NCBI GenBank assembly: GCA_017394885.1
Contig: JAFPWO010000025.1
Coordinates: forward strand, 1 to 64,000
Direction of reading: 5' to 3'
Origin: Lachnospiraceae bacterium
GTDB taxonomy: Bacteria > Bacillota > Clostridia > Lachnospirales > Lachnospiraceae
Length of the DNA stretch: 64,000 bases
Shown here: piece by piece, positions 1 to 13,201 of the stretch
Position numbering within the stretch: position 1 is the stretch's first letter
Layout: the number at the start of each line of letters is the position of its first letter
Made by a program: the position numbers and the translations under genes
Notes under the pieces: generated by a model
What the model was told of the DNA's origin: nothing
Seen by the model: only the letters and a program-made list of their open reading frames with translations
The model's database searches: none

Positions 1-375
1 GGCAGCATCGAAGGCCTGACGAAGCCGCAGGCGGCGCTGATCTTCGGAACGGAGACTTCGATCAAGTTCTACTTCCAGTACAGCGGCGACGTAAGCGAGC
101 TCAGCTTCAGCTGCAACAACGGAATGGATGTCACGCCGGTGGCGCAGAGCAACGACGGAAGATACTTCGTCAAGATCAACGGCCTGCGTTCGTACGTGCT
201 GTACAAGGACTATGTGCTTACCATCACGAAGGGAAGCGAGAAGCTGGAACTGACTTACTCACCGTACACCTACGCGGCGAATAAGTGGGATTCCTCCGAC
301 AACAAGGAAGCGACCCTGATGCACGCGTTTGTTGAATACGGCAATGCGGCAAGAGCTGCCTGGCCGAACAACTAA
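1..375 (+). CDS. C-terminal end of a secreted protein (5' truncated by window edge)
   Basis: An open frame enters from the window edge in frame 1 and ends at TAA 373-375, giving the last 124 residues of a larger protein. The stretch aligns almost without gaps to the last 120 or so residues of the giant subtilase encoded next (842-7192): both share TETSIKFYF/SETSLKIYF, then DGRY, a GLRSYVLYKD/GIRSYELYKD motif, YSPYxYAAxKW and a closing YGxAARxxW. By eye about half the positions are identical. The upstream body is not visible, so its activity is unknown. By analogy with its neighbour it is probably another large exported protein. A strong terminator follows at 401-432, so the two genes are separate transcription units. 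Confidence 0.85.
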   Translation, partial: GSIEGLTKPQAALIFGTETSIKFYFQYSGDVSELSFSCNNGMDVTPVAQSNDGRYFVKINGLRSYVLYKDYVLTITKGSEKLELTYSPYTYAANKWDSSDNKEATLMHAFVEYGNAARAAWPNN

Positions 376-791: not shown

Positions 792-841
792 CTACGTTGA
801 ATCCTTATCGGGATACTATAATTACTCAGGAAGGAGATACT

Positions 842-3800
842 ATGAAACAAAGCAACTTTTTACGCAGACTGACTTCGTTTGTTCTGGCCGCTGCTATGAT
901 CATCGGCCTGACAAGCGGTCTGCCTGCCAAAAAAGTTCTTGCCGCGGGAGAGAGTGAAAACTCTCGTTTGACCTGGGAAAAGGTCGAGAACGAAGGCAGA
1001 GGACGAATGTTTCAAAGTAAGGAAGCAGCAAAGCTTTTCGAAGAGAACTATGTAAAGGAAGGGAAGGTTCGTGTTTCCATCGTTCTGGAAGCACCTTCCG
1101 CCATTGAAAAAGGTTATTCGACGAATAATATTGCTGCAAACACCGGCGCGAAGACTTATCGTGCACAGCTGCGTGCGCAGCAGGAGGAACTGGCTGACAG
1201 AATCTCCAGTCAGGTCCTCGGCGGAAAGCAGCTGGAGGTGGTCTGGCATCTGACGCTGGCAGCCAATATCATTTCCGCTTATGTGCCGTATGAGAAATTG
1301 GATGAGATCGGGCTGGTAAGAGGCGTTAAGAAGGTCATTGTGGAAACACAGTATGAACCGGAAAGCACGATCAAAGAAGAAAACCAGCCGAATATGGCTA
1401 CCGGTTCGGAAATGGTCGGCGGCAATCTTGCCTGGGCATCTGATCTGACCGGTGCCGGCAGCCGGATCGCGGTCGTGGATACCGGCCTGGACATTGAGCA
1501 TGAACTGTTTGCGGCGGATTCTTTTGAACATGCGATCGAGGGACAGAATGTTCAGCTGATGACAGCCAGCGATGCAGCAAATGTCTGGGACCAGCTGAAT
1601 GTTTCGCAGTGGGTCGCTTCTTCAGCCGGAACCTATGTAAACAGCAAAGTTCCTTTTGGCGTCAACTATGTTGATTTTGATTTGGATATCACCCATGCGA
1701 ATGACAGACAGGGTGAACATGGTTCCCACGTCGCCGGTATTGCCGCCGGTAACCGTTTCGTAAAAGAGGACGGAGAGTTCAAATCTTCGCTTGATACGGT
1801 TATGACGCAGGGCGAAGCGCCGGATGCGCAGCTCCTGATCATGAAGGTCTTCGGCAAGGGCGGCGGCGCCTATGATTCCGATTATTTCGCTGCGATCGAA
1901 GATGCGATTCTTCTTGGCGCGGATGCGGTGAACCTGTCGCTCGGCTCTTCGGTGGCCGGCTTCGTAATGGATGAGGATTTTCAGGATATCCTGGACAGCC
2001 TGACCGAGTGCACGAATCTGGTCTGGTGCAACTCTGCCGGCAACAACTATGACTGGACGAATTTCAACATCGGCAAATACGGCGGTTCTCTCTATGCAGA
2101 TGACGTCAATTTTGCGACTGGCGGCAGCCCCGGTACCTATGCTCCGACCTTAAGCGTGGCTTCGGTGGAGAACAAAGGGTCTACAGGAATGTATATTGAA
2201 GTGAAAGGCACCAAGTATTCCTATACAGAGACCCAGTATAAGAACACAAAAATTACTTCACTGGCGGATCAAAGCCCGCTGGAGTACGTTCTTTTTGATG
2301 ATCCCGCTGTCATCTCAGACGATGATGACAACATTCTTGAAGATCATTTCGCGGATCTGGATGAAGGCGTACTGACCGGCAAAGTCGCGATGTGCTACCG
2401 CGGTTCTTCCAGCTTTTACCAGAAAGTGGATGCCGCCGCTGCGGCCGGAGCCGTTGCCTGCGTCGTTATTAATAACAGGAGCGGCGCTTTTGGCATGGTG
2501 CTGAGCGATATGGAATCAACGCTTCCCGCCATTTCGATCTCGCAAGCGGATGGGGATTCTATTATTGCCGACTCTGAAGAAACAGAGATTAATGGCATGA
2601 CGGCCTATACCGGCACGCTCGTTATCGGAAAAACACCGTATATCAATAATCCCGGTGAAGTAGACAGCTATACCATGAGCGACTTCTCCAGCTGGGGCGT
2701 ACCCGGTGATCTGAGCATGAAACCGGAGATCACTGCACCCGGCGGAAATATCTATTCTGTACATGGCTATGCTTATGACAGTTCTACCGGGACATATGCC
2801 GGCGGTCCGGGATATTATGAGAACATGTCCGGTACCTCCATGGCATCTCCTCAGCTGGCCGGCCTGGCAGCACTGATGGCACAGTACATCCGCGAAAATG
2901 ATCTGGTGACCAAAACCGGGAAGACGGCAAGACAGCTGACACTGAGCCTGCTGATGTCTACCGCGGAGCCGATCGTAAATTCGAATGGCGCTCTGTATTC
3001 GATCCTGAAGCAGGGCTCCGGTCTGGCCAATATCAACAATGCGGTCAATGCTCGCTCGTATGTAACGATAGATAAGGTGGCGAATACCGCCCCGGCTTCC
3101 GCTGCTGCCTCTATCGCGGATGGAAAGGTAAAAGTTGAACTTGGGCAGGTAAAGAGCGATTTCGTATCGGCAAGCTTTACATTGCACAACTTCTCAGACG
3201 AATCGATTTCGTACTATCTGAGTGCGGAATTCTTTACCCAGTTGATCTATAGTGGCTTCCGCTGGCAGGATATTACGCCGCTCACCCTCAATCTGACCTG
3301 GACGGTGAACGGGCAGACCTATGTTCCCAAAGATGCCGAGAAGTTTGACTTTAACGGGGATAATGTTGTCAGCAGCCACGATGCGCAGCATCTGCTGGAA
3401 TACTGCACCGGTCTTAAGACTTCGCTCAACGGGAATGACGCGTATGCGGATTTTGACCAGGACGGCGATATCGATACCTATGATGCACGGCTGGCTTATG
3501 AAAAGCTGAATAATGCTTCACTGGATATAGCAGCTAATTCCGATGCGCAGATCGTGCTGACAGTATCCGGGCTGGATGCCGCGTTGGGAACTGCCATAAA
3601 CGGCAACTATATCGAAGGTTACATCTATGCACAGGAAGGCGAGACCGAAGACGGCGCGCTGGGCGTTCAGCATTCGATCCCGGTACTGGGATTCTACGGC
3701 AACTGGACTGATGCATCCATGTATGACAAGGGAACCTATCTGGACAGCTTTGATAATAGTTTCGGCAGTGAGACCAGATATCCGTATATGGTTTATGGAA

Positions 3801-6800
3801 CCGGAGGATACTATTATCCGCAGAGCTTCCTGGTACAGTACAGCGGAGATCCCAATCTGTATTATTTCGGCGGGAACCCGATCACTCGTTTCGATACCGA
3901 TTTCAGCTTTTCGGAAGAACTGTATCTGCCGGAGCGCAACGCCCTGAATCAGAATGATATGATCGCGGGCATCCAGTATACGCTTATCCGCAACTCTGCC
4001 GGCTGCCGTTTCTTCGTTACGGATAAAGACGGTGATATTATCGCTCTGATGAACGGTGGAAGCTCCTATGCCGCCTATTATTCGCAGAAGGATGAAGCAT
4101 GGCAATATGTAAGCACCACGATGACCTTCAACTATCTTGCCAAAGGTCTGGAAGAAGGGCAGAACTATACGCTGAACTGGCAGATGGCACCGGAGTATTA
4201 CGTTGATACAGAGACCGGTGAAATCAGCTGGGATGAGGTCGGTAAGGGAACGCTGATAAGTATTCCGTTCGTGATCGACAATACCGTGCCGGAGATCGAC
4301 GGTGCAGCGTACGATGAAGACACGATGACGATCGCAGTCACCGCATCCGATAATCAGTATATTTCTGCTGTCGTGCTCTATACGGAAGAAGGCGAACAGG
4401 TTGATATCTATCCGGGCTTTGCTGAACTGGAACCCGGAGAAGAGATGACCTATCCGTTTAACCTTTCCTCGGTACTGACCGGGGAAGAAACGGATCCGGT
4501 CCACTTCCTGATAGAGGTTTATGACTATGCCTGCAACCTCTCTACCTATAAAGTAAACCTGAATCCGGAGGAAGCGGACGATGCCTATGAAGTCGTTCTG
4601 AATCAGCATGAAGCAGAAATCGTGAATGCCGGAACGCTTCAGTTGTCTGCGACTGTCTACCCGTGGAGTTATGCGGATGAAACCTTGATTTGGTCTTCTT
4701 CCGATGAGACGCTTGCGGTAGTGGATGAGAATGGTCTGGTACAGGGTGTAGCAAAAGAGAACGGCGGTACTGTAACGATCACGGCCACGTCTGCCGTGGA
4801 TCCGAATGCTTCAGACAGCTGCGAGGTAACCGTCACCGTTCTTAAAAAGGGTCTGAACGGCATTGTCTGGGATGAACAAGGCGCTATCTGGCTGTCGGCA
4901 TTTGATATAAGCACTTTGCCGGCTTATGATAAGCTGAATGCGGAATCCTATTATCCGACCCTGCTGAGCTCCATGACCTATGATGAAAACGGCACGCTTT
5001 ACGCGGTCAGCTTTGATAATTCGGATTGGTCATCGGTCGTTTATACGATGGATCCGAACACGTACGAACTGACGGAAGTCGGCGCCGGTACAGTTGGCTA
5101 TATGGATATCTGTCAGGCTCCGAGTCTGGCAGGAGGTCTGTTGCTGGCGGTTTATGGACCGTATGTTATGCTGGTAAACAAAGCAACAGGCGCTATGGCA
5201 GGCTACTTTGATTTCTCGGACGACTTAGGCGACAACTATTTTGTTGGCATTGCTTACGAGGAACAATATGATCATCCTTCATATGGGCTGACTGACTGGA
5301 TATGGCTGATTGATGAAGCAGGCAACCTGTATAATACCGGATTCCTGAACTACAACGGCAGTTATACCCGCTTTACTCTCAGGAATCTTGGCCAGATCGG
5401 CGACAAGGTTGACAGACGGTACTGGCAGTCCCTGTATTATGATGGTGAAGATCTCTACTGGAGCAGATTCAATTATGCGGATAATGTCGTCGAGTTGATT
5501 ATGGTCAATGACATCTATAGCGATGGCAGTATCTATCATCTGGGCAAATTCGGAGACGGCGTATGGCCGGTCGGCGGTTTGTTCGAGATGGGTGTCAATC
5601 CGTATTTCGGACCGATTTCCGAGAGCGGTACGAATGAAAGACACAGCGATGCAGAGATTAATGAAAACAGTGCCTTCCTGACCGAGATTGAACCGCTTCC
5701 GGTCCCTGCTTCCGAGAGCACGCACAAGGGCTCCCTGAATGCGGTGAAGACGTCTGACGACGGTAAGACCGCTGATCCCGATAAGGTCTCCACCGAAGTG
5801 AAGATCGAGATCGCAGCGGAAGAGCTTTCCAAGAACGGCCTAATCACGCTGGAGATTCCGGAGACGGCAGAGCTTCTGAATATCGAAAGCTATGCGGAGC
5901 ATGAAGCCTGGAATTATAAGGATGACGGAACAATCGTTTACGGCTTTGTGGACGAGATCGGTATTCTGGAAGGACGGAACATTCTGGTCCTGACCTTCTC
6001 CAAGGAAAGCAGCGGTACAGTCACCATTACGACCGAAGATATCAACACGGACGATGAGCAGCACCTGGTAGAGACAGTTATTCTCGGTACGGCAACGGCC
6101 GAGCATACGGTCCACACCTACGGCGAACCGACCTGGGAGTGGGCTGAAGACTTCACCAGCGCTACCGCCACCTTCGTCTGCCCGGTCGATGACGACACGC
6201 AGGTCGTGGAAGCAAATGTGGAAAGTGTGTTCGATGCAGAAAGCGGCATCCTTACCTACACTGCGACCGTGACCTTCGAGGAAAAAGAGTACACCGATAC
6301 CGTGGAGATCGATCTCTCCGAAGTCGGCTATACGGCAACGGTTACCATGCAGGAGAACTTCAACCTGAACCTTTACATCAGAAATGTGAAAGATGAAGAT
6401 GCTGCTAATTTCGATGTGAAGTGGACCTTTGACGGGGCTGAGTACGAGGCTAACCTGGGTGAATTGAAGAAACAGTCTGACGGACGTTTCAAGATCCAGC
6501 TGGCGAAGGTCTTCTCGTACCAGATGACAAAGCCGTTCGAGATCGTGGTCACATACCTCGGTGTTGAGATCAAGACCATTGATTATTCGATCCAGAAGTA
6601 CTTCGAAAACCGTCTGAAAGCGGACAATGAAAGTGATGAGATGAAGGCCGTTTACAAGGCAGCCCTTGACTACGGCGCATCCGCACAGCTGTACTTTGAC
6701 GGCAAGTCGTATGCCGGCGGAACGTATGATACGGATGTGGAGCATCTTGCCAATGCGAATTCCAATCCGGATAATACCATTACGGCAACGAAGCCGAACA

Positions 6801-7192
6801 ATGCTTCAGCCAAGTCAGGCAGCGTAACAGGCTTTACTCCCAAGACCGCGACGCTGATCTTCGGCAGTGAGACATCCCTGAAGATCTACTTCCTGTTCGA
6901 CGGAGACATTGCCGATCTGACGGTCGGCTGCGACAATGGCAAGACGGTAACCGAACCGGTACTGGGAAGCGATGGCCGGTATTCCATTAAGCTTGAGGGC
7001 ATCCGCTCTTATGAGCTCTACAAGGATTTCGTGTTCAGCTTCTCCAAGGGATCAGAGACCGCAACGGTCACCTATTCTCCGTATGCGTATGCAGCGAAGA
7101 AGTGGGAATCCTCTGATGCGAATGAAGCAAGACTGGTCCAGGCTCTCGTAGCCTACGGTGACGCCGCCAGAGTCGTCTGGGGTGAAAACTGA
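842..7192 (+). CDS. Giant secreted subtilisin-family (S8) protease with dockerin-like and Ig-like domains
   Basis: This encodes a 2,116-residue exported serine protease. The start at 842 is chosen over an in-frame ATG at 797 because it follows GGAAGGAGA at a good distance and opens a signal peptide (MKQSNFLRR, a hydrophobic core, cleavage near VLAA). The catalytic triad is intact: Asp213 in AVVDTG, His293 in HGSHVAG and Ser666 in GTSMASP. A protease-associated domain sits between His and Ser at roughly 480-560, as in lactocepin and C5a-peptidase-like enzymes. A dockerin-like pair of calcium loops (DFNGDNVV and DFDQDGDID) lies at about 836-890. A bacterial Ig-like (Big_2) domain spans about 1250-1336. 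The tail carries two tandem copies of an unnamed module (about 1830-1975 and 1990-2116). I see no LPXTG motif, S-layer domain or transmembrane anchor. Its likely role is extracellular protein breakdown. Confidence 0.93.
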   Translation: MKQSNFLRRLTSFVLAAAMIIGLTSGLPAKKVLAAGESENSRLTWEKVENEGRGRMFQSKEAAKLFEENYVKEGKVRVSIVLEAPSAIEKGYSTNNIAANTGAKTYRAQLRAQQEELADRISSQVLGGKQLEVVWHLTLAANIISAYVPYEKLDEIGLVRGVKKVIVETQYEPESTIKEENQPNMATGSEMVGGNLAWASDLTGAGSRIAVVDTGLDIEHELFAADSFEHAIEGQNVQLMTASDAANVWDQLNVSQWVASSAGTYVNSKVPFGVNYVDFDLDITHANDRQGEHGSHVAGIAAGNRFVKEDGEFKSSLDTVMTQGEAPDAQLLIMKVFGKGGGAYDSDYFAAIEDAILLGADAVNLSLGSSVAGFVMDEDFQDILDSLTECTNLVWCNSAGNNYDWTNFNIGKYGGSLYADDVNFATGGSPGTYAPTLSVASVENKGSTGMYIEVKGTKYSYTETQYKNTKITSLADQSPLEYVLFDDPAVISDDDDNILEDHFADLDEGVLTGKVAMCYRGSSSFYQKVDAAAAAGAVACVVINNRSGAFGMVLSDMESTLPAISISQADGDSIIADSEETEINGMTAYTGTLVIGKTPYINNPGEVDSYTMSDFSSWGVPGDLSMKPEITAPGGNIYSVHGYAYDSSTGTYAGGPGYYENMSGTSMASPQLAGLAALMAQYIRENDLVTKTGKTARQLTLSLLMSTAEPIVNSNGALYSILKQGSGLANINNAVNARSYVTIDKVANTAPASAAASIADGKVKVELGQVKSDFVSASFTLHNFSDESISYYLSAEFFTQLIYSGFRWQDITPLTLNLTWTVNGQTYVPKDAEKFDFNGDNVVSSHDAQHLLEYCTGLKTSLNGNDAYADFDQDGDIDTYDARLAYEKLNNASLDIAANSDAQIVLTVSGLDAALGTAINGNYIEGYIYAQEGETEDGALGVQHSIPVLGFYGNWTDASMYDKGTYLDSFDNSFGSETRYPYMVYGTGGYYYPQSFLVQYSGDPNLYYFGGNPITRFDTDFSFSEELYLPERNALNQNDMIAGIQYTLIRNSAGCRFFVTDKDGDIIALMNGGSSYAAYYSQKDEAWQYVSTTMTFNYLAKGLEEGQNYTLNWQMAPEYYVDTETGEISWDEVGKGTLISIPFVIDNTVPEIDGAAYDEDTMTIAVTASDNQYISAVVLYTEEGEQVDIYPGFAELEPGEEMTYPFNLSSVLTGEETDPVHFLIEVYDYACNLSTYKVNLNPEEADDAYEVVLNQHEAEIVNAGTLQLSATVYPWSYADETLIWSSSDETLAVVDENGLVQGVAKENGGTVTITATSAVDPNASDSCEVTVTVLKKGLNGIVWDEQGAIWLSAFDISTLPAYDKLNAESYYPTLLSSMTYDENGTLYAVSFDNSDWSSVVYTMDPNTYELTEVGAGTVGYMDICQAPSLAGGLLLAVYGPYVMLVNKATGAMAGYFDFSDDLGDNYFVGIAYEEQYDHPSYGLTDWIWLIDEAGNLYNTGFLNYNGSYTRFTLRNLGQIGDKVDRRYWQSLYYDGEDLYWSRFNYADNVVELIMVNDIYSDGSIYHLGKFGDGVWPVGGLFEMGVNPYFGPISESGTNERHSDAEINENSAFLTEIEPLPVPASESTHKGSLNAVKTSDDGKTADPDKVSTEVKIEIAAEELSKNGLITLEIPETAELLNIESYAEHEAWNYKDDGTIVYGFVDEIGILEGRNILVLTFSKESSGTVTITTEDINTDDEQHLVETVILGTATAEHTVHTYGEPTWEWAEDFTSATATFVCPVDDDTQVVEANVESVFDAESGILTYTATVTFEEKEYTDTVEIDLSEVGYTATVTMQENFNLNLYIRNVKDEDAANFDVKWTFDGAEYEANLGELKKQSDGRFKIQLAKVFSYQMTKPFEIVVTYLGVEIKTIDYSIQKYFENRLKADNESDEMKAVYKAALDYGASAQLYFDGKSYAGGTYDTDVEHLANANSNPDNTITATKPNNASAKSGSVTGFTPKTATLIFGSETSLKIYFLFDGDIADLTVGCDNGKTVTEPVLGSDGRYSIKLEGIRSYELYKDFVFSFSKGSETATVTYSPYAYAAKKWESSDANEARLVQALVAYGDAARVVWGEN

Positions 7193-7225
7193 TCAACAAA
7201 AAGAATAGGATCTGAGTAGATCCGG

Positions 7226-7258
7226 CCCCGCGGTCTGAATAAGGCCGCGGGGATTCTT
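7226..7258 (+). terminator. Probable terminator of the subtilase gene
   Basis: CCCCGCGG 7226-7233 pairs with CCGCGGGG 7245-7252, extended by two weaker pairs. The following tract (ATTCTTAT) is only moderately T-rich, so termination may be partial. Confidence 0.7.
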
Positions 7259-7306
7259 ATCAGTACCTCTATGATTAAAAAATATAAAAGATGCACAAAA
7301 AAAGGC

Positions 7307-7335
7307 TTGCGTTTTGTTCTCTTTAGTGCTAATAT
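7307..7335 (+). promoter_or_regulatory. Promoter of the small peptide gene
   Basis: TTGCGT 7307-7312, a 17-base spacer and TAATAT 7330-7335. The transcript would start near 7342, giving the 36-residue peptide gene its own promoter. Confidence 0.78.
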
Positions 7336-7377
7336 GCTCTTTGTAATGGATTCTCAGCAAATGAAAGGAGTTTTCTC

Positions 7378-7488
7378 ATGAAGAAGTATACCGAAGCGGA
7401 AGTCGAAATCATTCGTTTTGACGTACGTGATATGATTACCACCAGCGGCCCCGGCGAACAGGGCGAAGGCGGCGGAGACGATCTGTAA
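7378..7488 (+). CDS. 36-residue peptide, candidate RiPP precursor
   Basis: ATG at 7378 follows AAAGGAG (7363-7370) at normal spacing and the frame closes at TAA 7486-7488. The first half is charged and amphipathic (MKKYTEAEVEIIRFDVRD) and would suit a leader. The second half begins ITTSG and is then dominated by Gly, Glu and Asp, ending DDL. Thr5, Thr21, Thr22 and Ser23 are the only hydroxyl side chains apart from Tyr4, and there is no Cys or Trp. It has its own promoter and a strong terminator, and lies 300 bases before an operon of HprK-like kinase, PqqD-like protein, S26-type peptidase and exporter. I recall similar MKKY...DVITTSG peptides as hypothetical proteins in gut Clostridia. Its role as a modified, exported peptide precursor is inference from context. 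Confidence 0.75.
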   Translation: MKKYTEAEVEIIRFDVRDMITTSGPGEQGEGGGDDL

Positions 7489-7502
7489 AGATCACGGTTA
7501 AT

Positions 7503-7532
7503 AAAGGAGGGCTTTTATGCCCTCCTTTCCTT
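7503..7532 (+). terminator. Rho-independent terminator of the peptide gene
   Basis: A perfect 10-base-pair stem (7503-7512 with 7519-7528) with a 6-base loop, followed by CCTTTTAT. It ends the peptide transcript 15 bases after the stop codon and insulates it from the modification operon, so peptide and enzymes can be made at different levels. Confidence 0.88.
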
Positions 7533-7620
7533 TTATCATGAAAAAGGAAGAATGTCAGGCGGAGCAATTGCTTTTCCGTCTGTTTGTGTTATGAATAAAA
7601 TTTGCACATAAATACACGAC

Positions 7621-7660
7621 GGGAAGGAGGATGGCGGAAGCTTTTGTCCTTCCCTTTTTC
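7621..7660 (+). other. Second hairpin with T tract in the peptide-kinase gap
   Basis: GGGAAGGA 7621-7628 pairs with TCCTTCCC 7647-7654 and is followed by TTTTTC. It could be a back-up terminator. The surrounding gap 7533-7729 contains only very short frames without a convincing ribosome binding site, and I see nothing else in it. Confidence 0.5.
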
Positions 7661-7729
7661 TTGTATTGTTGATGTATGCGCCTTGATTTTCCGGAAAAGA
7701 TCATCTTACCCGGATATCATACACATAAC

Positions 7730-7757
7730 TTGCAAACTGCCGGAAAATCCGTATAAT
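7730..7757 (+). promoter_or_regulatory. Promoter of the kinase-PqqD-peptidase-ABC operon
   Basis: TTGCAA 7730-7735, a 16-base spacer and a perfect TATAAT 7752-7757. The first gene starts at 7797. No further clear promoter is seen before hprK at 12269, so this may also drive hprK-murB-whiA. Confidence 0.8.
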
Positions 7758-7796
7758 ATCCTTTGAATAAAGGGATGAATAACAGGAGGTTTTGGC

Positions 7797-8534
7797 TTGG
7801 AGATCCTTCGCCTTGCAGAACGGAATATCAGTATTTCTGGTCTTTCTGACTCGTTTCCGGATTTTGCCCGGGATTATCTATGCGAGGCTGAAACACCGGA
7901 TTTTTCTGTGAACTGTACTTCGGAGGATATCGCCCGGGAACAGAAGAAATCAGAGGAAGAAGCTGTCCTGGAGGGGATAAAGCCCCGGCTCTGGCCGGCT
8001 CCGTATCTGGAAACGCTGGCGGTTTACCGTAAGATAGCCGAGAAAATGCCGGCTTATGATACGTTCCTGTTTCACGGTTCTGTCATAGCCGTCGATGGAG
8101 AAGCTTTTCTTTTTACAGCCAAGAGCGGCACCGGGAAGTCTACTCATACACGGCTCTGGCGGGAATATTTCGGAGACCGCGTGTTTATGGTGAACGATGA
8201 TAAGCCGCTGCTCCGCGTATTGCCGGACGGAAGTGTTACCGCATACGGTACGCCCTGGAACGGCAAGCATCATCTGAGCAGAAATATCGGCGTCCCCTTA
8301 AAAGCTGTTTGCATTTTGACAAGGGATACGTATAATCATATTGAACGGTTAACGGCAGAAGAGGCATATGCCTCTCTATATCAGCAGGTCTATCATCCGA
8401 AGGAAGGAGAGGCGCTGCTGAAAACGCTGGAGCTGTTGGATATTCTTTGTAAAAACGTGGGATTATATCGCCTTGGCTGCAACATGGATCCGGAGGCTGC
8501 CCGGGTCGCCTATGAGGGAATGACAAGAGGATAA
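7797..8534 (+). CDS. HprK-like kinase of a peptide-modification cluster
   Basis: This 245-residue protein starts with TTG behind AGGAGG (7784-7789). It carries an HPr-kinase-type P-loop, SGTGKST at residues 110-116, preceded by a hydrophobic strand, and a downstream NDDKP stretch at 133-137 that matches the VADD region of HprK. It lacks the N-terminal half of true HprK, and a full canonical hprK sits only 4.4 kb downstream, so it is a paralogue and not the HPr enzyme. Kinases of this kind occur in lasso-peptide clusters such as paeninodin, where one phosphorylates a Ser of the precursor. Here the inferred substrate is the 36-residue peptide at 7378-7488, whose Thr-Thr-Ser run is the obvious target. 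Substrate not proven. Confidence 0.82.
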   Translation: MEILRLAERNISISGLSDSFPDFARDYLCEAETPDFSVNCTSEDIAREQKKSEEEAVLEGIKPRLWPAPYLETLAVYRKIAEKMPAYDTFLFHGSVIAVDGEAFLFTAKSGTGKSTHTRLWREYFGDRVFMVNDDKPLLRVLPDGSVTAYGTPWNGKHHLSRNIGVPLKAVCILTRDTYNHIERLTAEEAYASLYQQVYHPKEGEALLKTLELLDILCKNVGLYRLGCNMDPEAARVAYEGMTRG

Positions 8535-8609
8535 ATATCATACAATCCTGACAGTATCTGCGGCGATGAGAATTATCGCTGCGGCATAAAGAAAACAGAG
8601 GTACTTACT

Positions 8610-8870
8610 GTGAAATTAAAAAAAGGGTTTTATACCCATCAGGCCGGAAATGCACAGGTCATGGTCGGCGTGGCCGGAACCGGTTTTTCCGGGATCTTCC
8701 GGAGTAATGAGACGGCCGCATTTATCGTGGATCAGTTAAAAAACGAAACCACTGAGGATGAGATCGTAAAAGCGATACTGGCGGAGTATGACGCCACGGA
8801 AGACCAGGCTCGACGGGATGTTCGGATGGTACTGGGAAAACTGAGAGAAATCTCAGCCCTGGAGGAGTAA
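8610..8870 (+). CDS. PqqD-family protein (RiPP recognition element)
   Basis: An 86-residue protein starting with GTG at 8610; the ribosome binding site (CAGAGG) is weak. Its pattern fits the PqqD fold: a beta-rich N-terminal half (GFYTHQAGNAQVMVGV, then FSGIFRSNETAAFIVDQL) and a helical half (TTEDEIVKAILAEYDAT). PqqD-like domains bind the leader of a precursor peptide and present it to the modifying enzyme. In this operon it sits between the HprK-like kinase and the S26-type peptidase, so it probably presents the small peptide to one or both. No fused enzymatic domain is present. Confidence 0.85.
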   Translation: MKLKKGFYTHQAGNAQVMVGVAGTGFSGIFRSNETAAFIVDQLKNETTEDEIVKAILAEYDATEDQARRDVRMVLGKLREISALEE

Positions 8871-8886
8871 GCGGTTTGGGAGCACA

Positions 8887-9366
8887 ATGAACAAGCAGGC
8901 AATGGAGAATCGGATCCCGGAAGGAACGATCGATTTCGAAACCTACCTTAAAGAAAACGGATCCCTGACCTACTGGAATCGCGGCGCCAGCATGCGTCCG
9001 CTGATCCGGCAGGACAAGGATCTGTTTACGGTACTTCCCAAAACCAGGGGTCGCTGTCAGAAATATGACGTGGTGCTGTATAAGCGCCATAACGGCGTAT
9101 ATGTACTGCATCGGATTCTGAAGGTCCGGGAAGACGATTACGGGATCCTGGGGGATAACACCTATAAAATGGAATACGGCATTACCGATCGCGACATTCT
9201 GGGCGTGATGACGGCTTTCTCCCGGGGCGGGAAATCCTGGACGTCCGTTGAATCTGCCGGATACCGATTTTATGTCCGCTTCTGGTTTGCGATATATCCG
9301 CTTCGGAAGGCTTTTGTTGCCGGAAGACGCCTGGCAGCACGCATTTACCACCGTATTGCAAAGTAA
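8887..9366 (+). CDS. S24/S26-type signal peptidase-like protein with Ser-His dyad
   Basis: This 159-residue protein has the signal peptidase boxes: GASMRPLI with nucleophile candidate Ser35, KYDVVLYKR, VLHRILKV with His75, and ILGDN with Asp90. His in place of the bacterial general-base Lys (HRI) is the pattern of SipW, archaeal and ER-type (Sec11) signal peptidases. A short hydrophobic segment near residues 127-137 could be a single membrane span, placed C-terminally as in SipW-type enzymes. Lying between the PqqD protein and the exporter, it is the likely leader peptidase of the peptide system. It starts 17 bases after pqqD and ends 7 bases before the ABC gene. The LexA-like regulator alternative is unlikely because there is no DNA-binding domain. 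Confidence 0.8.
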   Translation: MNKQAMENRIPEGTIDFETYLKENGSLTYWNRGASMRPLIRQDKDLFTVLPKTRGRCQKYDVVLYKRHNGVYVLHRILKVREDDYGILGDNTYKMEYGITDRDILGVMTAFSRGGKSWTSVESAGYRFYVRFWFAIYPLRKAFVAGRRLAARIYHRIAK

Positions 9367-9372
9367 AGATCG

Positions 9373-11091
9373 ATGGAACAGACAACGAATCAAAAAACTT
9401 CGAATATGGCATGGCTGCTGCAGGTGACCCGGAAAAAGAGGTGGAGCATCTGGCTTCTTTTGCTTATCCAGCTGCTTTTGGCCGGGGCTGCGTTGTTTCA
9501 GACCTGGATGCTGAAAGGCCTGATCGATGCGGCTGTCAGCGGGAACAGCGGGGAGTTCCGCGCCCGGGCATTTTTACTGGTCGGGATCATGCTGGCGCAG
9601 CTCGCCATGCGGGCCGGACTGCGTTTCCTGCGGGAATATTCTCATGCATCGATCGAAAACGCATTGAAAAGCAGGCTCTTTGATTGCCTTCTGACCCGCT
9701 CTTTCCCGGAGGTTACAGCGGTTCATTCGGGAGAATGGATGAACCGGCTAACCAACGATACGACAGTAGTGGCGACCGGCCTCAGTGATATTGTCCCGGA
9801 TGTGATGGGGATGATCCTGCGGCTGATCGGAGGCATCGTTCTGATCCTGATCATGATCCCGCAGGTGGCATGGGTCATGGTGCCGGGAGGATTGCTGCTC
9901 GTCTTTTTTACCTTTCTCTTTCGGAAAAAACTCAAACTGCTGCATAAGCGCATCCAGGAAGCGGACGGACGGCTTCGGGTATTTTTGACAGATCGCCTGA
10001 CCAGTATGCTTGTGGTGCGTTCCTTTGTCCGGGAAGAAGCCGCTAAGGCGGAAGGAGACTGTTTTATGGACAGCCATAAGGCGGCCCGGATGAAGCGGAA
10101 TCATTTTTCCAATCTCTGCAACGTGGGTTTCGGCCTGTTCGTGCACGGAGCTTATATCGGCGCCGCCATTTACTGCGGCTGGGGGATCCTGAAAGGATTC
10201 CTGAGCTACGGGACCTTTGTCGCGACGCTGCAGCTGGTCGCGCAGGCGCAGACGCCTTTTGCCAATATTTCCGGCTATCTGCCCCGATATTATGCGATGC
10301 TGGCCAGCGCCGAGCGGCTGAGGGAAGCGGAAGGTTTTGAGGAAGACTTAAAAGAACCGCGGGTGGATCCGTCGGCGATCCAATCCTTTTATGCAGACGA
10401 GATGCAGGCCCTGTCCCTGCAGAATGCGTCTTTCAGTTATCCGGTCCGGGAAGGGGAACCGCAGCGAAGGACCTTGCACGAGGTGAATTTGCGCCTTTCT
10501 AAAGGAGAAATCACAGCGGTGACCGGCCCCTCCGGCTGCGGGAAAAGCACATTGCTGAAACTTCTGATGGCGCTGTATCCGCTGGATGAGGGAGAACGGC
10601 TGCTTGTAAATAAGGACGGCGAGATGGCTCTTCTCACCGCCGCCTGGCGCGGTCTGTTCGCTTATGTGCCCCAGGGCAACCAGCTGATGAGCGGGACGAT
10701 CCGGGAAGTCGTCTGTTTCGGAGACGGGACGGTTTCGGAAGAAAAAGTTAGAGAATCCCTGCATATCGCGTGCGCGGACTTTGTCGAAGAATTGCCGCTT
10801 GACCTGGACACCCCGATCGGTGAGCGCGGCGCCGGTCTGTCGGAAGGACAGCTGCAGCGCCTGGCCATTGCCCGCGCCATCTGCTCGGAGCATCCGATCC
10901 TGCTGCTGGATGAAGCGACCAGTTCCCTGGATGAGGCGACAGAGCAGAAGCTCCTGGAGAATCTGGAGACCATGACGGACCGCACGGTGATTATTGTGAC
11001 GCACCGCCCCGGCGTTCTTCGGATCTGCAGCCAGGAGATACGAATGACAGAGGAGGGGATCCGGGTCAGAAACCTGGCCGAAAAAGGATAG
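9373..11091 (+). CDS. ABC exporter, fused membrane and ATPase domains
   Basis: A 572-residue half-transporter. Residues about 17-310 hold the six-helix exporter domain. The nucleotide-binding domain (about 335-565) has Walker A GPSGCGKS with Lys391, signature LSEGQ at 489-493 and Walker B LLLDEA with Asp513 and Glu514, then a switch His in VTHRP. There is no N-terminal C39 peptidase domain, which fits with leader removal by the separate S26-type protein just upstream. As a homodimer it probably exports the mature peptide. It starts 6 bases after the peptidase stop and is followed after 5 bases by the nucleotidyltransferase gene. Confidence 0.93.
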   Translation: MEQTTNQKTSNMAWLLQVTRKKRWSIWLLLLIQLLLAGAALFQTWMLKGLIDAAVSGNSGEFRARAFLLVGIMLAQLAMRAGLRFLREYSHASIENALKSRLFDCLLTRSFPEVTAVHSGEWMNRLTNDTTVVATGLSDIVPDVMGMILRLIGGIVLILIMIPQVAWVMVPGGLLLVFFTFLFRKKLKLLHKRIQEADGRLRVFLTDRLTSMLVVRSFVREEAAKAEGDCFMDSHKAARMKRNHFSNLCNVGFGLFVHGAYIGAAIYCGWGILKGFLSYGTFVATLQLVAQAQTPFANISGYLPRYYAMLASAERLREAEGFEEDLKEPRVDPSAIQSFYADEMQALSLQNASFSYPVREGEPQRRTLHEVNLRLSKGEITAVTGPSGCGKSTLLKLLMALYPLDEGERLLVNKDGEMALLTAAWRGLFAYVPQGNQLMSGTIREVVCFGDGTVSEEKVRESLHIACADFVEELPLDLDTPIGERGAGLSEGQLQRLAIARAICSEHPILLLDEATSSLDEATEQKLLENLETMTDRTVIIVTHRPGVLRICSQEIRMTEEGIRVRNLAEKG

Positions 11092-11096
11092 GACCA

Positions 11097-12272
11097 ATGA
11101 CAGAAAGAGTCTTGACACCGGAAGCGGAAGCCTTATTATATCTGACAGCCTGTGCCGTGAACGGGGCGATCCCCCGAAAAGAGCGGGTTGCTTCTTTTGC
11201 GTGGGAGAAGCTTCTGGAAAAGGCAAAACAGCAGAAGATGAGCGCGATGGCAGCGATCGCGCTGGAAAGCATGCATGAGGAAGATCAGGCTGTTATCCCG
11301 GAAGAGATCCGAAGAGAATGGCAGAAACTGCGGATGTCTAATCTGCGCAGAAGAATGTTGTTTGATGCGGAGCGCGGGGAACTGTTCCGGCTGTTTGACG
11401 AAAAGGAGATCTGGTATCTGCCGCTCAAAGGCATTATTATTCAGGACTATTATCCGGTCTATGAGATGCGGGAGATGACGGATAATGACATCCTTTACAA
11501 CCCGCAGAAAAAAAGAAAGCTGTGCCGGATCTTTAAAGACAGGCAGTACCGGTATGTTTCTGAGCATAACGTGGATGCCTTCATGAAGGAGCCCTTCTTT
11601 AATTTTGAGATGCACAGAAGAATATTCCCAGGGAATCTGTCTTTTTTCTCTGCCGTCATGAAGCGTACCATTCCAGCCGGAGACGGGACGCTGGAAAGGC
11701 TTATGACCCCGGAAGACTTTTACCTGCATTTTTTACAGCACGCCAGAAAGCATATGCTCAGCAAAGGGTCAGGCATTCGTCCTCTTGCGGACCTGTTTGT
11801 AATCCAGAATTCTTTGGGAGACAAATGGGATGCGTCCCTGTTGGAGAAAGGGATAAACGCTTTGGATCTGCAGAATTTCCGGCTTGTTATGGAGGGCCTC
11901 ACCGATAAGCTGCTTTCGGATCCGGAGTGTCAGGATATCAGCAAGCTCTCCGATGAGGAATGGCTCTTCCTGTCCCATATGACAGGGTCATACATGTACG
12001 GTGACCAGCAGCAGTTTGTCCGGAACTTTTTTGAACAAAATGTCGGTGAGCAGGTTACCCTGCGATCCCGAATGAAATATCTTTGGCTGCGTTTATTCCC
12101 GGATATGGAATACATGAAGGCTTATTTCCCGATATTGAGGAAAATCCCGGTTTTGCTGCCATTCCTTTATCCTGTCCGATGGGTGCTGCAATGGCTTCGA
12201 AGATCAGAACACATAAAAGCAGAACTGAAGTTTTTACGGAAAATCTCGAAAGTAAGGGAGGATAAATCATGA
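11097..12272 (+). CDS. Nucleotidyltransferase-family protein (NTP_transf_5 type)
   Basis: This 391-residue protein has the hallmark of the uncharacterised nucleotidyltransferase family often found in lasso and other RiPP clusters: LKG at residues 110-112, then Y-x-x-REM-T-D129-N-D131-IL, with two acidic residues expected to bind metal. The rest is helical. It is the last cluster-specific gene, 5 bases after the ABC transporter, and its stop codon overlaps the start of the true hprK (ATGA at 12269-12272). It may add a nucleotide or related group to the peptide, or act on another metabolite in the pathway; neither is shown by sequence. Confidence 0.8.
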   Translation: MTERVLTPEAEALLYLTACAVNGAIPRKERVASFAWEKLLEKAKQQKMSAMAAIALESMHEEDQAVIPEEIRREWQKLRMSNLRRRMLFDAERGELFRLFDEKEIWYLPLKGIIIQDYYPVYEMREMTDNDILYNPQKKRKLCRIFKDRQYRYVSEHNVDAFMKEPFFNFEMHRRIFPGNLSFFSAVMKRTIPAGDGTLERLMTPEDFYLHFLQHARKHMLSKGSGIRPLADLFVIQNSLGDKWDASLLEKGINALDLQNFRLVMEGLTDKLLSDPECQDISKLSDEEWLFLSHMTGSYMYGDQQQFVRNFFEQNVGEQVTLRSRMKYLWLRLFPDMEYMKAYFPILRKIPVLLPFLYPVRWVLQWLRRSEHIKAELKFLRKISKVREDKS

Positions 12273-13201
12273 ACGCGATCAGTCTGGAACAGCTGGCTCA
12301 TGAACTGCAGCTGGAAAATCTTACCCCCGAGATCCCTCTCTATGATATTCTGATCCAGACGGCGGAAATGAACCGGCCGGCGCTGCAGCTGACGGGCTTT
12401 CTGGAGCATTTTGATCCGAGCCGTGTCCAGGTGATCGGCCTGGTAGAGCATACCTATGTCAATTCGCTGGAGCCGGAAGAGCGGATCCGCGCTTTTGAGC
12501 GGCTTTTTTCCGCCCATATCCCCTGCCTGATCCTTTGCCGGGGCTTTAAGCCGGCGGAGGATGTGGTGACTCTGGCGCTGCGCTATCATGTTCCGATTCT
12601 CTCCAGTCCGATGTCGACCTCGACCTTCCAGGCCCGCATCATGCGGCTTCTGGAGGTGCGTCTGGCGCCGATGGTGGCCATTCACGGCTGTCTGGTGGAC
12701 GTTTTCGGGGAAGGCGTGCTGATGCTCGGAGACAGCGGCGTGGGCAAGAGCGAGACGGCGCTGGAGCTGATCAAGCGCGGACACCGCCTGGTCGCGGACG
12801 ATACCGTGGAGATCCGCCGCTACAGCGAGAACGAGCTGTACGGCCGCGCGCCGGAAGTGACAAAGTATCTCATGGAACTGCGCGGCATCGGCGTGATCGA
12901 TGTCAAAGCGCTGTACGGGGTCGCCAGCGTCAAGGATGACATGCGCATCAGCATGGTCATGAAGCTGGAATCCTGGGACAATAAAAAGATTTTCGACCGG
13001 CTCGGCATGCGGGAGGATTTTGTGGAGTATCTGGGCAATAAAGTCACCTGCTATACCGTCCCCATGAGCGCGGGCCGCAACTCGGCGGTGATTGTGGAGA
13101 CGGCCGCCATTAACTTCCGGCAGAAGAGAATGGGCTACGACGCGATGCAGGAGCTGGAGAGGCGCCTTGCGGAGCAGATGAGCCGGAACCGGGGAGAATA
13201 A
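12269..13201 (+). CDS. hprK: HPr kinase/phosphorylase
   Basis: The canonical bifunctional enzyme that phosphorylates and dephosphorylates HPr at Ser46 to control carbon catabolite repression. At 310 residues it is full length. It has the N-terminal domain, P-loop GDSGVGKS at 154-161, LVADDTVEI and the C-terminal signature LRGIGVIDV. The ATG sits after AGGGAGG and overlaps the previous gene by 4 bases, so it is translationally coupled to the peptide-modification operon. It is followed within 2 bases by murB. In many Firmicutes hprK is grouped with cell-envelope genes; coupling to a RiPP-like cluster is unusual. Confidence 0.96.
   Translation: MNAISLEQLAHELQLENLTPEIPLYDILIQTAEMNRPALQLTGFLEHFDPSRVQVIGLVEHTYVNSLEPEERIRAFERLFSAHIPCLILCRGFKPAEDVVTLALRYHVPILSSPMSTSTFQARIMRLLEVRLAPMVAIHGCLVDVFGEGVLMLGDSGVGKSETALELIKRGHRLVADDTVEIRRYSENELYGRAPEVTKYLMELRGIGVIDVKALYGVASVKDDMRISMVMKLESWDNKKIFDRLGMREDFVEYLGNKVTCYTVPMSAGRNSAVIVETAAINFRQKRMGYDAMQELERRLAEQMSRNRGE

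What the first reader, a model, noticed from the sequence alone, without database searches (positions are those of the whole stretch)
7307..12272. RiPP-like cluster with an HprK-like kinase, PqqD, S26-type peptidase and exporter but no known core-modifying enzyme
Seen: a 36-residue peptide gene with its own promoter and terminator, then five close genes (HprK-like kinase, PqqD-family, S26-type peptidase, ABC exporter, nucleotidyltransferase-family). Known: HprK-like kinases, PqqD-like proteins and this nucleotidyltransferase family occur in lasso-peptide clusters such as paeninodin. Here there is no asparagine-synthetase-like cyclase, no transglutaminase-like B2 protease and no radical-SAM enzyme. 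Inference: a class of peptide whose only modifications are phosphorylation and possibly nucleotidylation, then leader removal and export.
Basis: partly seen in the sequence, partly recalled or inferred. Interest (0 to 1): 0.82.

Follow-up and report, generated by a model that had tools for sequence, protein, structure and literature searches.

The report
Peptide maturation cassette for surface proteins
A small set of lasso-peptide-type genes, without the lasso-forming enzymes, processes tiny peptides whose genes almost always sit directly after the gene of a large secreted protein with an undescribed end domain, which suggests an unknown way in which gut and rumen bacteria finish or display surface proteins.

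Summary
The genes are real: a 36-aa leader-bearing peptide, then HprK-like kinase, PqqD, S26-type peptidase, ABC exporter and PF14907 protein. The genome (97% complete) has no asparagine-synthetase-like protein, no second PqqD and no close homologue of the radical SAM maturase that same-genus relatives carry between peptide and kinase. In 392 class-wide genomes 46 of 48 peptide carriers have the kinase (p 5e-40). Up to 18 peptide genes are scattered per genome, nearly always just downstream of a large Sec-secreted protein; in the window, the S8 subtilase at 797-7192. These proteins share unnamed domains at their extreme C-terminus. The window's type (CTD1, Ig-like model) occurs only in kinase-positive genomes among 145 relatives and is followed by a peptide in 27 of 47 class-wide cases (0.02 expected). 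Where tails are long they track the client's end domain (r 0.71-0.92); this is weak for CTD1 itself. Best reading: the cassette matures and exports peptides that act as small partners of secreted proteins; a radical SAM step is optional and matches Cys in the tail (7/7 versus 1/81). Kinase target, tail chemistry and purpose are inferred; 'nucleotidylation' is weakly supported.

The parts
797..7192 (+). large Sec-secreted S8 subtilase with PA, Big_2 and dockerin domains (probable start ATG 842); presumed client of the peptide
6329..7192 (+). CTD1: unnamed C-terminal domain of the subtilase, two beta-sandwich-plus-helix units
7226..7252 (+). terminator-like hairpin after the subtilase gene
7378..7446 (+). 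leader part of the peptide gene (MKKYTEAEVEIIRFDVRDMITTS), conserved family
7447..7488 (+). tail (presumed core) GPGEQGEGGGDDL plus stop; no Ser, Thr or Cys
7503..7528 (+). terminator-like hairpin after the peptide gene
7797..8534 (+). HprK/PEPCK-fold kinase
8610..8870 (+). PqqD-family protein (leader-binding element), the only one in the genome
8887..9366 (+). S26-type peptidase, Ser35/His75/Asp90, presumed leader peptidase
9373..11091 (+). ABC exporter, membrane and ATPase domain fused, no peptidase domain
11097..12272 (+). PF14907 'nucleotidyltransferase'-family protein

Best explanation
The cassette is a central maturation and export line for short leader-bearing peptides that are small partners of Sec-secreted surface or extracellular proteins. 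The leader (residues 1-23, ending ..ITTS) docks on PqqD; the S26-type Ser-His peptidase cuts it off, probably after S23; the HprK-like kinase and the PF14907 protein modify the peptide (site unknown; S23 is the only Ser of the window peptide); the ABC protein exports the tail. A radical SAM enzyme is an optional extra step used only when the tail has Cys. Outside, the tail meets the C-terminal domain of the client encoded just upstream (here the subtilase and its CTD1) and helps to assemble, anchor or activate it. Shown by computation: gene content, co-occurrence, gene pairing, shared C-terminal domains, tail/domain covariation in three genomes, and the radical SAM/Cys link. Inferred: every enzymatic step, the cut site, the extracellular meeting and its purpose.
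For: Peptide, kinase and CTD1 co-occur: peptide-kinase 46/48, CTD1-kinase 18/23, CTD1-peptide 17/23 in 392 genomes (p 5e-40, 6e-11, 1e-12). In the genus CTD1 is in 9/9 kinase-positive and 0/7 kinase-negative genomes, with at least 3 changes of kinase presence on an hprK tree. 27 of 47 complete CTD1 domains are followed by a peptide gene 21-191 bp downstream on the same strand, versus 0.02 expected. Other peptides lie about 15 bp after other secreted-protein genes; 51/57 complete clients have signal-peptide-like starts versus 169/644 other ORFs (p 2e-21). Client N-parts are unrelated: subtilase, M60, pectinesterase, LRR, GLUG, transglutaminase-like, LamG, while CTD1 ends within 0-5 residues of the C-terminus. 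Tail tracks client C-terminal domain in G338 (r 0.85), G159 (0.92), G158 (0.71); the leader in G338 only 0.14 although it lies between them; example pairs. Radical SAM and tail Cys: 7/7 versus 1/81.
Against: Adjacent genes can hitchhike and duplicate together, which by itself gives covariation. For CTD1-type pairs across species tail-domain covariation is weak (r 0.20, p 0.04; leader-domain r 0.38). Same-genus genomes with 8-10 CTD1 hits show one peptide gene, so pairing is not one to one. Five CTD1-positive genomes lack a kinase hit at 1e-30, two of them with peptides; assembly gaps cannot be excluded. 51 kinase-positive genomes lack CTD1, so other end domains must serve there. In the window a terminator separates client and peptide. 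No experiment shows binding, cleavage or modification.
Confidence: 0.55

Rival explanations
1. An ordinary secreted RiPP natural product or signal. The peptide acts alone after leader removal and export; the large secreted proteins are neighbours by linkage or shared regulation, for example extracellular processing, immunity or adhesion factors.
For: RiPP-type gene set; radical SAM variant with Cys tails; tails are short, variable and acidic, like diverse cores; weak tail-CTD1 covariation across species.
Against: Up to 18 dispersed peptide genes, each directly after a different secreted-protein gene; CTD1 absent from kinase-negative genus members; the tail follows the client domain rather than the leader in G338.
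Confidence: 0.2
2. A sorting or anchoring system proper: the modified peptide becomes covalently linked to the client's C-terminal domain and fixes it to the envelope, as sortase, exosortase or type IX CTD systems do.
For: One machine, many clients with unrelated N-parts and a common extreme C-terminal domain; CTD1 proteins end with no LPXTG or membrane tail; kinase plus PF14907 protein could make a phospho-linked adduct as in pseudomycoidin (PMC8498205).
Against: No sortase-like or other joining enzyme in the cassette; no evidence for a covalent bond or wall link; the CTD1 model resembles Ig domains, which have many uses.
Confidence: 0.15
3. One reading: a free peptide class whose only modifications are phosphorylation and perhaps nucleotidylation.
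For: HprK fold; lasso kinases phosphorylate precursors, and a PqqD-type B1 protein speeds this up in one system (PMC10368454); no cyclase or close maturase in the genome.
Against: Window tail lacks Ser/Thr; only 2 of 88 peptides end in Ser, the paeninodin-kinase target; the known PsmN-type enzyme adds hexose; ignores the client link.
Confidence: 0.07
4. A reduced or decaying radical SAM cluster: the window lineage lost the maturase and the rest persists.
For: Same-genus relatives have peptide-radical SAM-kinase-(PqqD)-S26.
Against: 73 of 80 homologous loci lack it; 80 of 81 tails without it lack Cys; no remnant in the 300-bp gap; all genes are intact, and ABC and PF14907 genes are present.
Confidence: 0.03

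Closest known systems
Paeninodin/pseudomycoidin-type phosphorylated lasso peptide clusters (genes A, K, B1, D, N)
   Same: HprK-like kinase, PqqD-type B1, ABC exporter and 'nucleotidyltransferase' N; leader with [YF]xxP in 59 of 82 peptides and Thr at -2 of the presumed cut in 40 of 82.
   Different: No cyclase C in the whole genome; no B2 protease in the cassette, an S26-type peptidase instead; window leader has YxxA; peptides rarely end in Ser; several dispersed peptide genes per genome, each beside a secreted-protein gene.
SynChlorMet cassette (ScmC kinase, ScmD PqqD, ScmE/F radical SAM)
   Same: Best curated kinase hit is ScmC (E 7e-5); kinase, PqqD and radical SAM together in the same-genus variant.
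   Different: All hits far below cut-offs; the window lacks the radical SAM genes; S26 peptidase and exporter are added.
TIGR04463 / geopeptide / CefB radical SAM-SPASM RiPP maturases
   Same: The maturase of same-genus relatives matches these best; tails there have Cys.
   Different: Below cut-offs; absent from the window and from 73 of 80 loci.
Sortase, exosortase (PEP-CTERM) and type IX CTD systems
   Same: One central machine, many clients with unrelated N-parts and a shared extreme C-terminal region (comparison from general knowledge).
   Different: A dedicated small peptide is added; no transpeptidase found; no LPXTG or membrane tail on the clients.

Membership tests
Lasso peptide cluster (paeninodin type) | asparagine-synthetase-like cyclase C | tested here: not met
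   PF00733 absent from the whole genome; control genomes ring
Lasso peptide cluster (paeninodin type) | transglutaminase-like B2 leader peptidase in the cluster | tested here: not met
   none among the cassette genes; genome-wide PF13471 search not run
Lasso peptide cluster (paeninodin type) | PqqD-type B1 protein | tested here: met
   PF05402 above cut-off; lasso-specific models below cut-off
Lasso peptide cluster (paeninodin type) | YxxPxL leader motif | tested here: inconclusive
   [YF]xxP in 59/82 family members, but YxxAxV in the window
Lasso peptide cluster (paeninodin type) | C-terminal Ser as kinase target | tested here: not met
   2 of 88 peptides end in Ser; the window's ends in Leu
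SynChlorMet cassette | ScmC/ScmD above cut-off and ScmE/ScmF radical SAM genes | tested here: not met
   22.3 of 125 bits and 14.6 of 100 bits; no radical SAM gene in the cluster
HPr-rel-A system | TIGR04352 and TIGR04353 above cut-off | tested here: not met
   16.1 of 200 and 13.2 of 35 bits
Radical SAM thioether RiPP (sacti-/ranthipeptide) | dedicated maturase and Cys in the core | tested here: not met
   window tail has no Cys and the genome no close maturase; both are present in same-genus relatives
HprK-type kinase | HprK/PEPCK fold with P-loop | tested here: met
S26 peptidase | Ser nucleophile and His (SipW/ER type) motifs | tested here: met
   S35, H75 and D90 invariant in 54 homologues; activity untested
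Dedicated surface-protein sorting system | client localisation depends on the cassette | not testable with these tools
   only co-occurrence and gene pairing are available

The most novel reading that the evidence does not exclude
A new kind of surface-protein maturation in Gram-positive anaerobes: a lasso-derived peptide-processing machine makes short modified peptides that recognise, and perhaps become joined to, matching C-terminal domains of secreted proteins, one machine serving many peptide-client pairs.
Probability: 0.4. Interest if true: 0.93.

Novelty: new variant of a known kind. Interest (0 to 1): 0.82.

Why it matters
If right, RiPP-type enzymes, known for making free natural products, are also used to equip secreted proteins of common gut and rumen bacteria. 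It would give a role and a substrate class to many unnamed small ORFs and end domains (no Pfam or NCBIfam family covers the peptide or CTD1), and would mean that part of the 'HPr kinase/PqqD/nucleotidyltransferase' loci of rumen bacteria are not lasso clusters. The idea is directly testable by peptide-plus-domain co-expression.

Tried and rejected
Search for a radical SAM remnant in the 300-bp gap between peptide and kinase: only chance-level matches. My first guess that the genome's single weak radical SAM match was the SCIFF maturase was wrong: it scores best with NirJ2/MoaA-like models. Sequence searches of kinase profile and S26 protein against PDB: nothing; a fold search was needed for the kinase. 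CTD1 by sequence against PDB: one E 0.06 hit, not used; its fold matches are generic Ig domains at Z about 6, which may mean only a common arrangement. Extra modifying genes in the cassettes of 80 loci: no recurrent one besides the radical SAM gene in 7 loci. Tail-CTD1 covariation across species as support for cognate pairing in the window's own type: weak, not relied on. A first within-genus tree used wrong-strand ORFs and was replaced. Literature searches for the gene set or for a PqqD-linked surface system gave lasso papers or nothing relevant. The genus tree is one gene only, and G012 holds two hprK copies (possible contamination).
Full report
OBSERVATION. The peptide is a real gene: its family recurs in 15 of 145 relatives and 48 of 392 class-wide genomes. 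PqqD, both ABC domains and the PF14907 protein pass Pfam cut-offs. The kinase is below all curated cut-offs, but its model (pLDDT 94.5) matches HPr kinase/phosphatase and PEPCK best. The S26 assignment rests on Ser35 in GxSMxP, His75-Arg76 and Asp90, invariant across 54 homologues. The next gene, 12269-13201, is the housekeeping hprK and marks the right border. Terminator-like hairpins lie at 7226-7252 and 7503-7528; no promoter match was found between 7250 and 7378.

WHAT THE GENOME LACKS. In the 2.22-Mb genome (97% complete) there is no Asn_synthase family member, a single PqqD and no close homologue of the relatives' radical SAM maturase. Fifteen radical SAM genes exist. Of the seven scanned, the two SPASM-like ones resemble NirJ2/MoaA-like and TIGR04133 proteins, below cut-offs, and neither lies beside a PqqD gene. 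A genome-wide B2 search was not done.

RELATIVES SHOW TWO ARCHITECTURES. In the same genus, four genomes have peptide - radical SAM - kinase - (PqqD) - S26 without ABC and PF14907 genes nearby; the maturase resembles TIGR04463, geopeptide and CefB maturases. The 80 best homologous loci in named genomes are mostly rumen and gut Ruminococcus, Lachnospiraceae and other Clostridia, with two Atopobiaceae MAGs. They mostly keep kinase-PqqD-S26-ABC-PF14907; 7 of 80 have the radical SAM gene. All 7 peptides beside a radical SAM gene have Cys in the tail; of 81 others one does (p 1.3e-9). So the radical SAM step looks like an optional add-on acting on Cys tails, and the Cys-free window peptide fits its absence.

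THE PEPTIDES GO WITH SECRETED PROTEINS. A whole-genome profile search showed several peptide genes per genome, mostly away from the cassette, up to 18 in one genome. Their neighbourhoods have one thing in common: a secreted-protein gene directly upstream, often by 4-50 bp or overlapping. In the window this is the subtilase at 797-7192, just outside the reported interval. Complete clients have signal-peptide-like starts in 51 of 57 cases versus 169 of 644 other ORFs. Their N-parts differ (subtilase, M60, pectinesterase/GDSL, BspA LRR, GLUG, LamG, transglutaminase-like) but their extreme C-termini fall into a few shared domains. The window type, CTD1, is about 287 residues, always within 0-5 residues of the end, modelled as two beta-sandwich-plus-helix units (pLDDT 87) with Ig-like matches of modest Z, and has no Pfam or NCBIfam family.

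STATISTICS. In 145 relatives CTD1 occurs in 11 genomes, all kinase-positive; in the genus in 9/9 kinase-positive and 0/7 kinase-negative genomes, with at least 3 changes of kinase presence on an hprK tree, so these are not 16 independent points. In 392 class-wide genomes: peptide with kinase 46/48 (p 5e-40), CTD1 with kinase 18/23 (p 6e-11), CTD1 with peptide 17/23 (p 1e-12); 27 of 47 complete CTD1 hits are followed by a peptide within 191 bp on the same strand, 0.02 expected. These p-values take no account of phylogeny.

COVARIATION. In three genomes with many pairs the tail tracks the client's last 110 residues (Mantel r 0.85, 0.92, 0.71), and in the pooled set the client's N-part adds nothing once the end domain is controlled for. 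The leader, which lies between domain and tail in the DNA, tracks the domain far less in G338 (0.14) and moderately in the others (0.62, 0.37). Examples: L249 and L259 share 92% of the leader but 26% of tail and 22% of end domain; L249 and L252 share 56% of tail and 47% of domain but 42% of leader. Leaders are constrained, which weakens the contrast, and linked genes can duplicate together. For CTD1-type pairs across species the effect is weak (r 0.20), so cognate recognition is not established for the window's own type.

MECHANISM. Leader features fit PqqD docking by the lasso precedent, where Tyr-17, Pro-14, Leu-12 and Thr-2 matter (PMC10368454): here [YF]xxP is found in 59/82, and Thr before a near-constant Ser in 40/82. 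The window peptide has YxxA. Ser23, with a small residue usual at -3, could be the -1 residue of an S26 cut or the phosphorylation site; it is the only Ser of the window peptide. The kinase is probably a peptide kinase by lasso precedent (PMC8498205), and the PF14907 protein may add a sugar to phosphate, as reported for pseudomycoidin, rather than a nucleotide. The ABC protein lacks a peptidase domain, so an S26 leader peptidase plus a plain exporter is consistent. The extracellular meeting of tail and client domain is inferred.

VERDICT. I file the cassette as a new variant of lasso-type RiPP maturation (it is not a lasso cluster: the cyclase test fails), with a substantial chance that the whole is a new kind of surface-protein system.

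Noticed in passing
window 1-375: End of a second CTD1-bearing protein, cut off by the contig start, with no peptide gene behind it.
   Followed up: partly
L131 (G022:C51) about 6701-7746: The 246-aa membrane-anchored protein upstream of the peptide ends in VDEDGWTTIIVKP, almost the peptide's own tail TDEDGWTVIIVKP.
   Followed up: no
G003, G007, G011 (loci L032-L034 and other contigs): 8-10 CTD1 hits per genome but one detected peptide gene, unlike G338 with 18 peptide genes.
   Followed up: no
L195, L198: The cassette also occurs in Atopobiaceae (Actinomycetota) MAGs, which suggests transfer between phyla.
   Followed up: no
L249, L252, L253, L258, L259: Leader and tail of the short peptide genes appear to be exchanged independently of each other.
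   Followed up: partly
G000:C20:112193-112633 and G000:C9:185662-186141: Two SPASM-like radical SAM genes of unclear role in the window's genome, below all NCBIfam cut-offs.
   Followed up: partly
G012 (L263, L277): Two hprK genes from different branches of the genus in one assembly, probably contamination.
   Followed up: no
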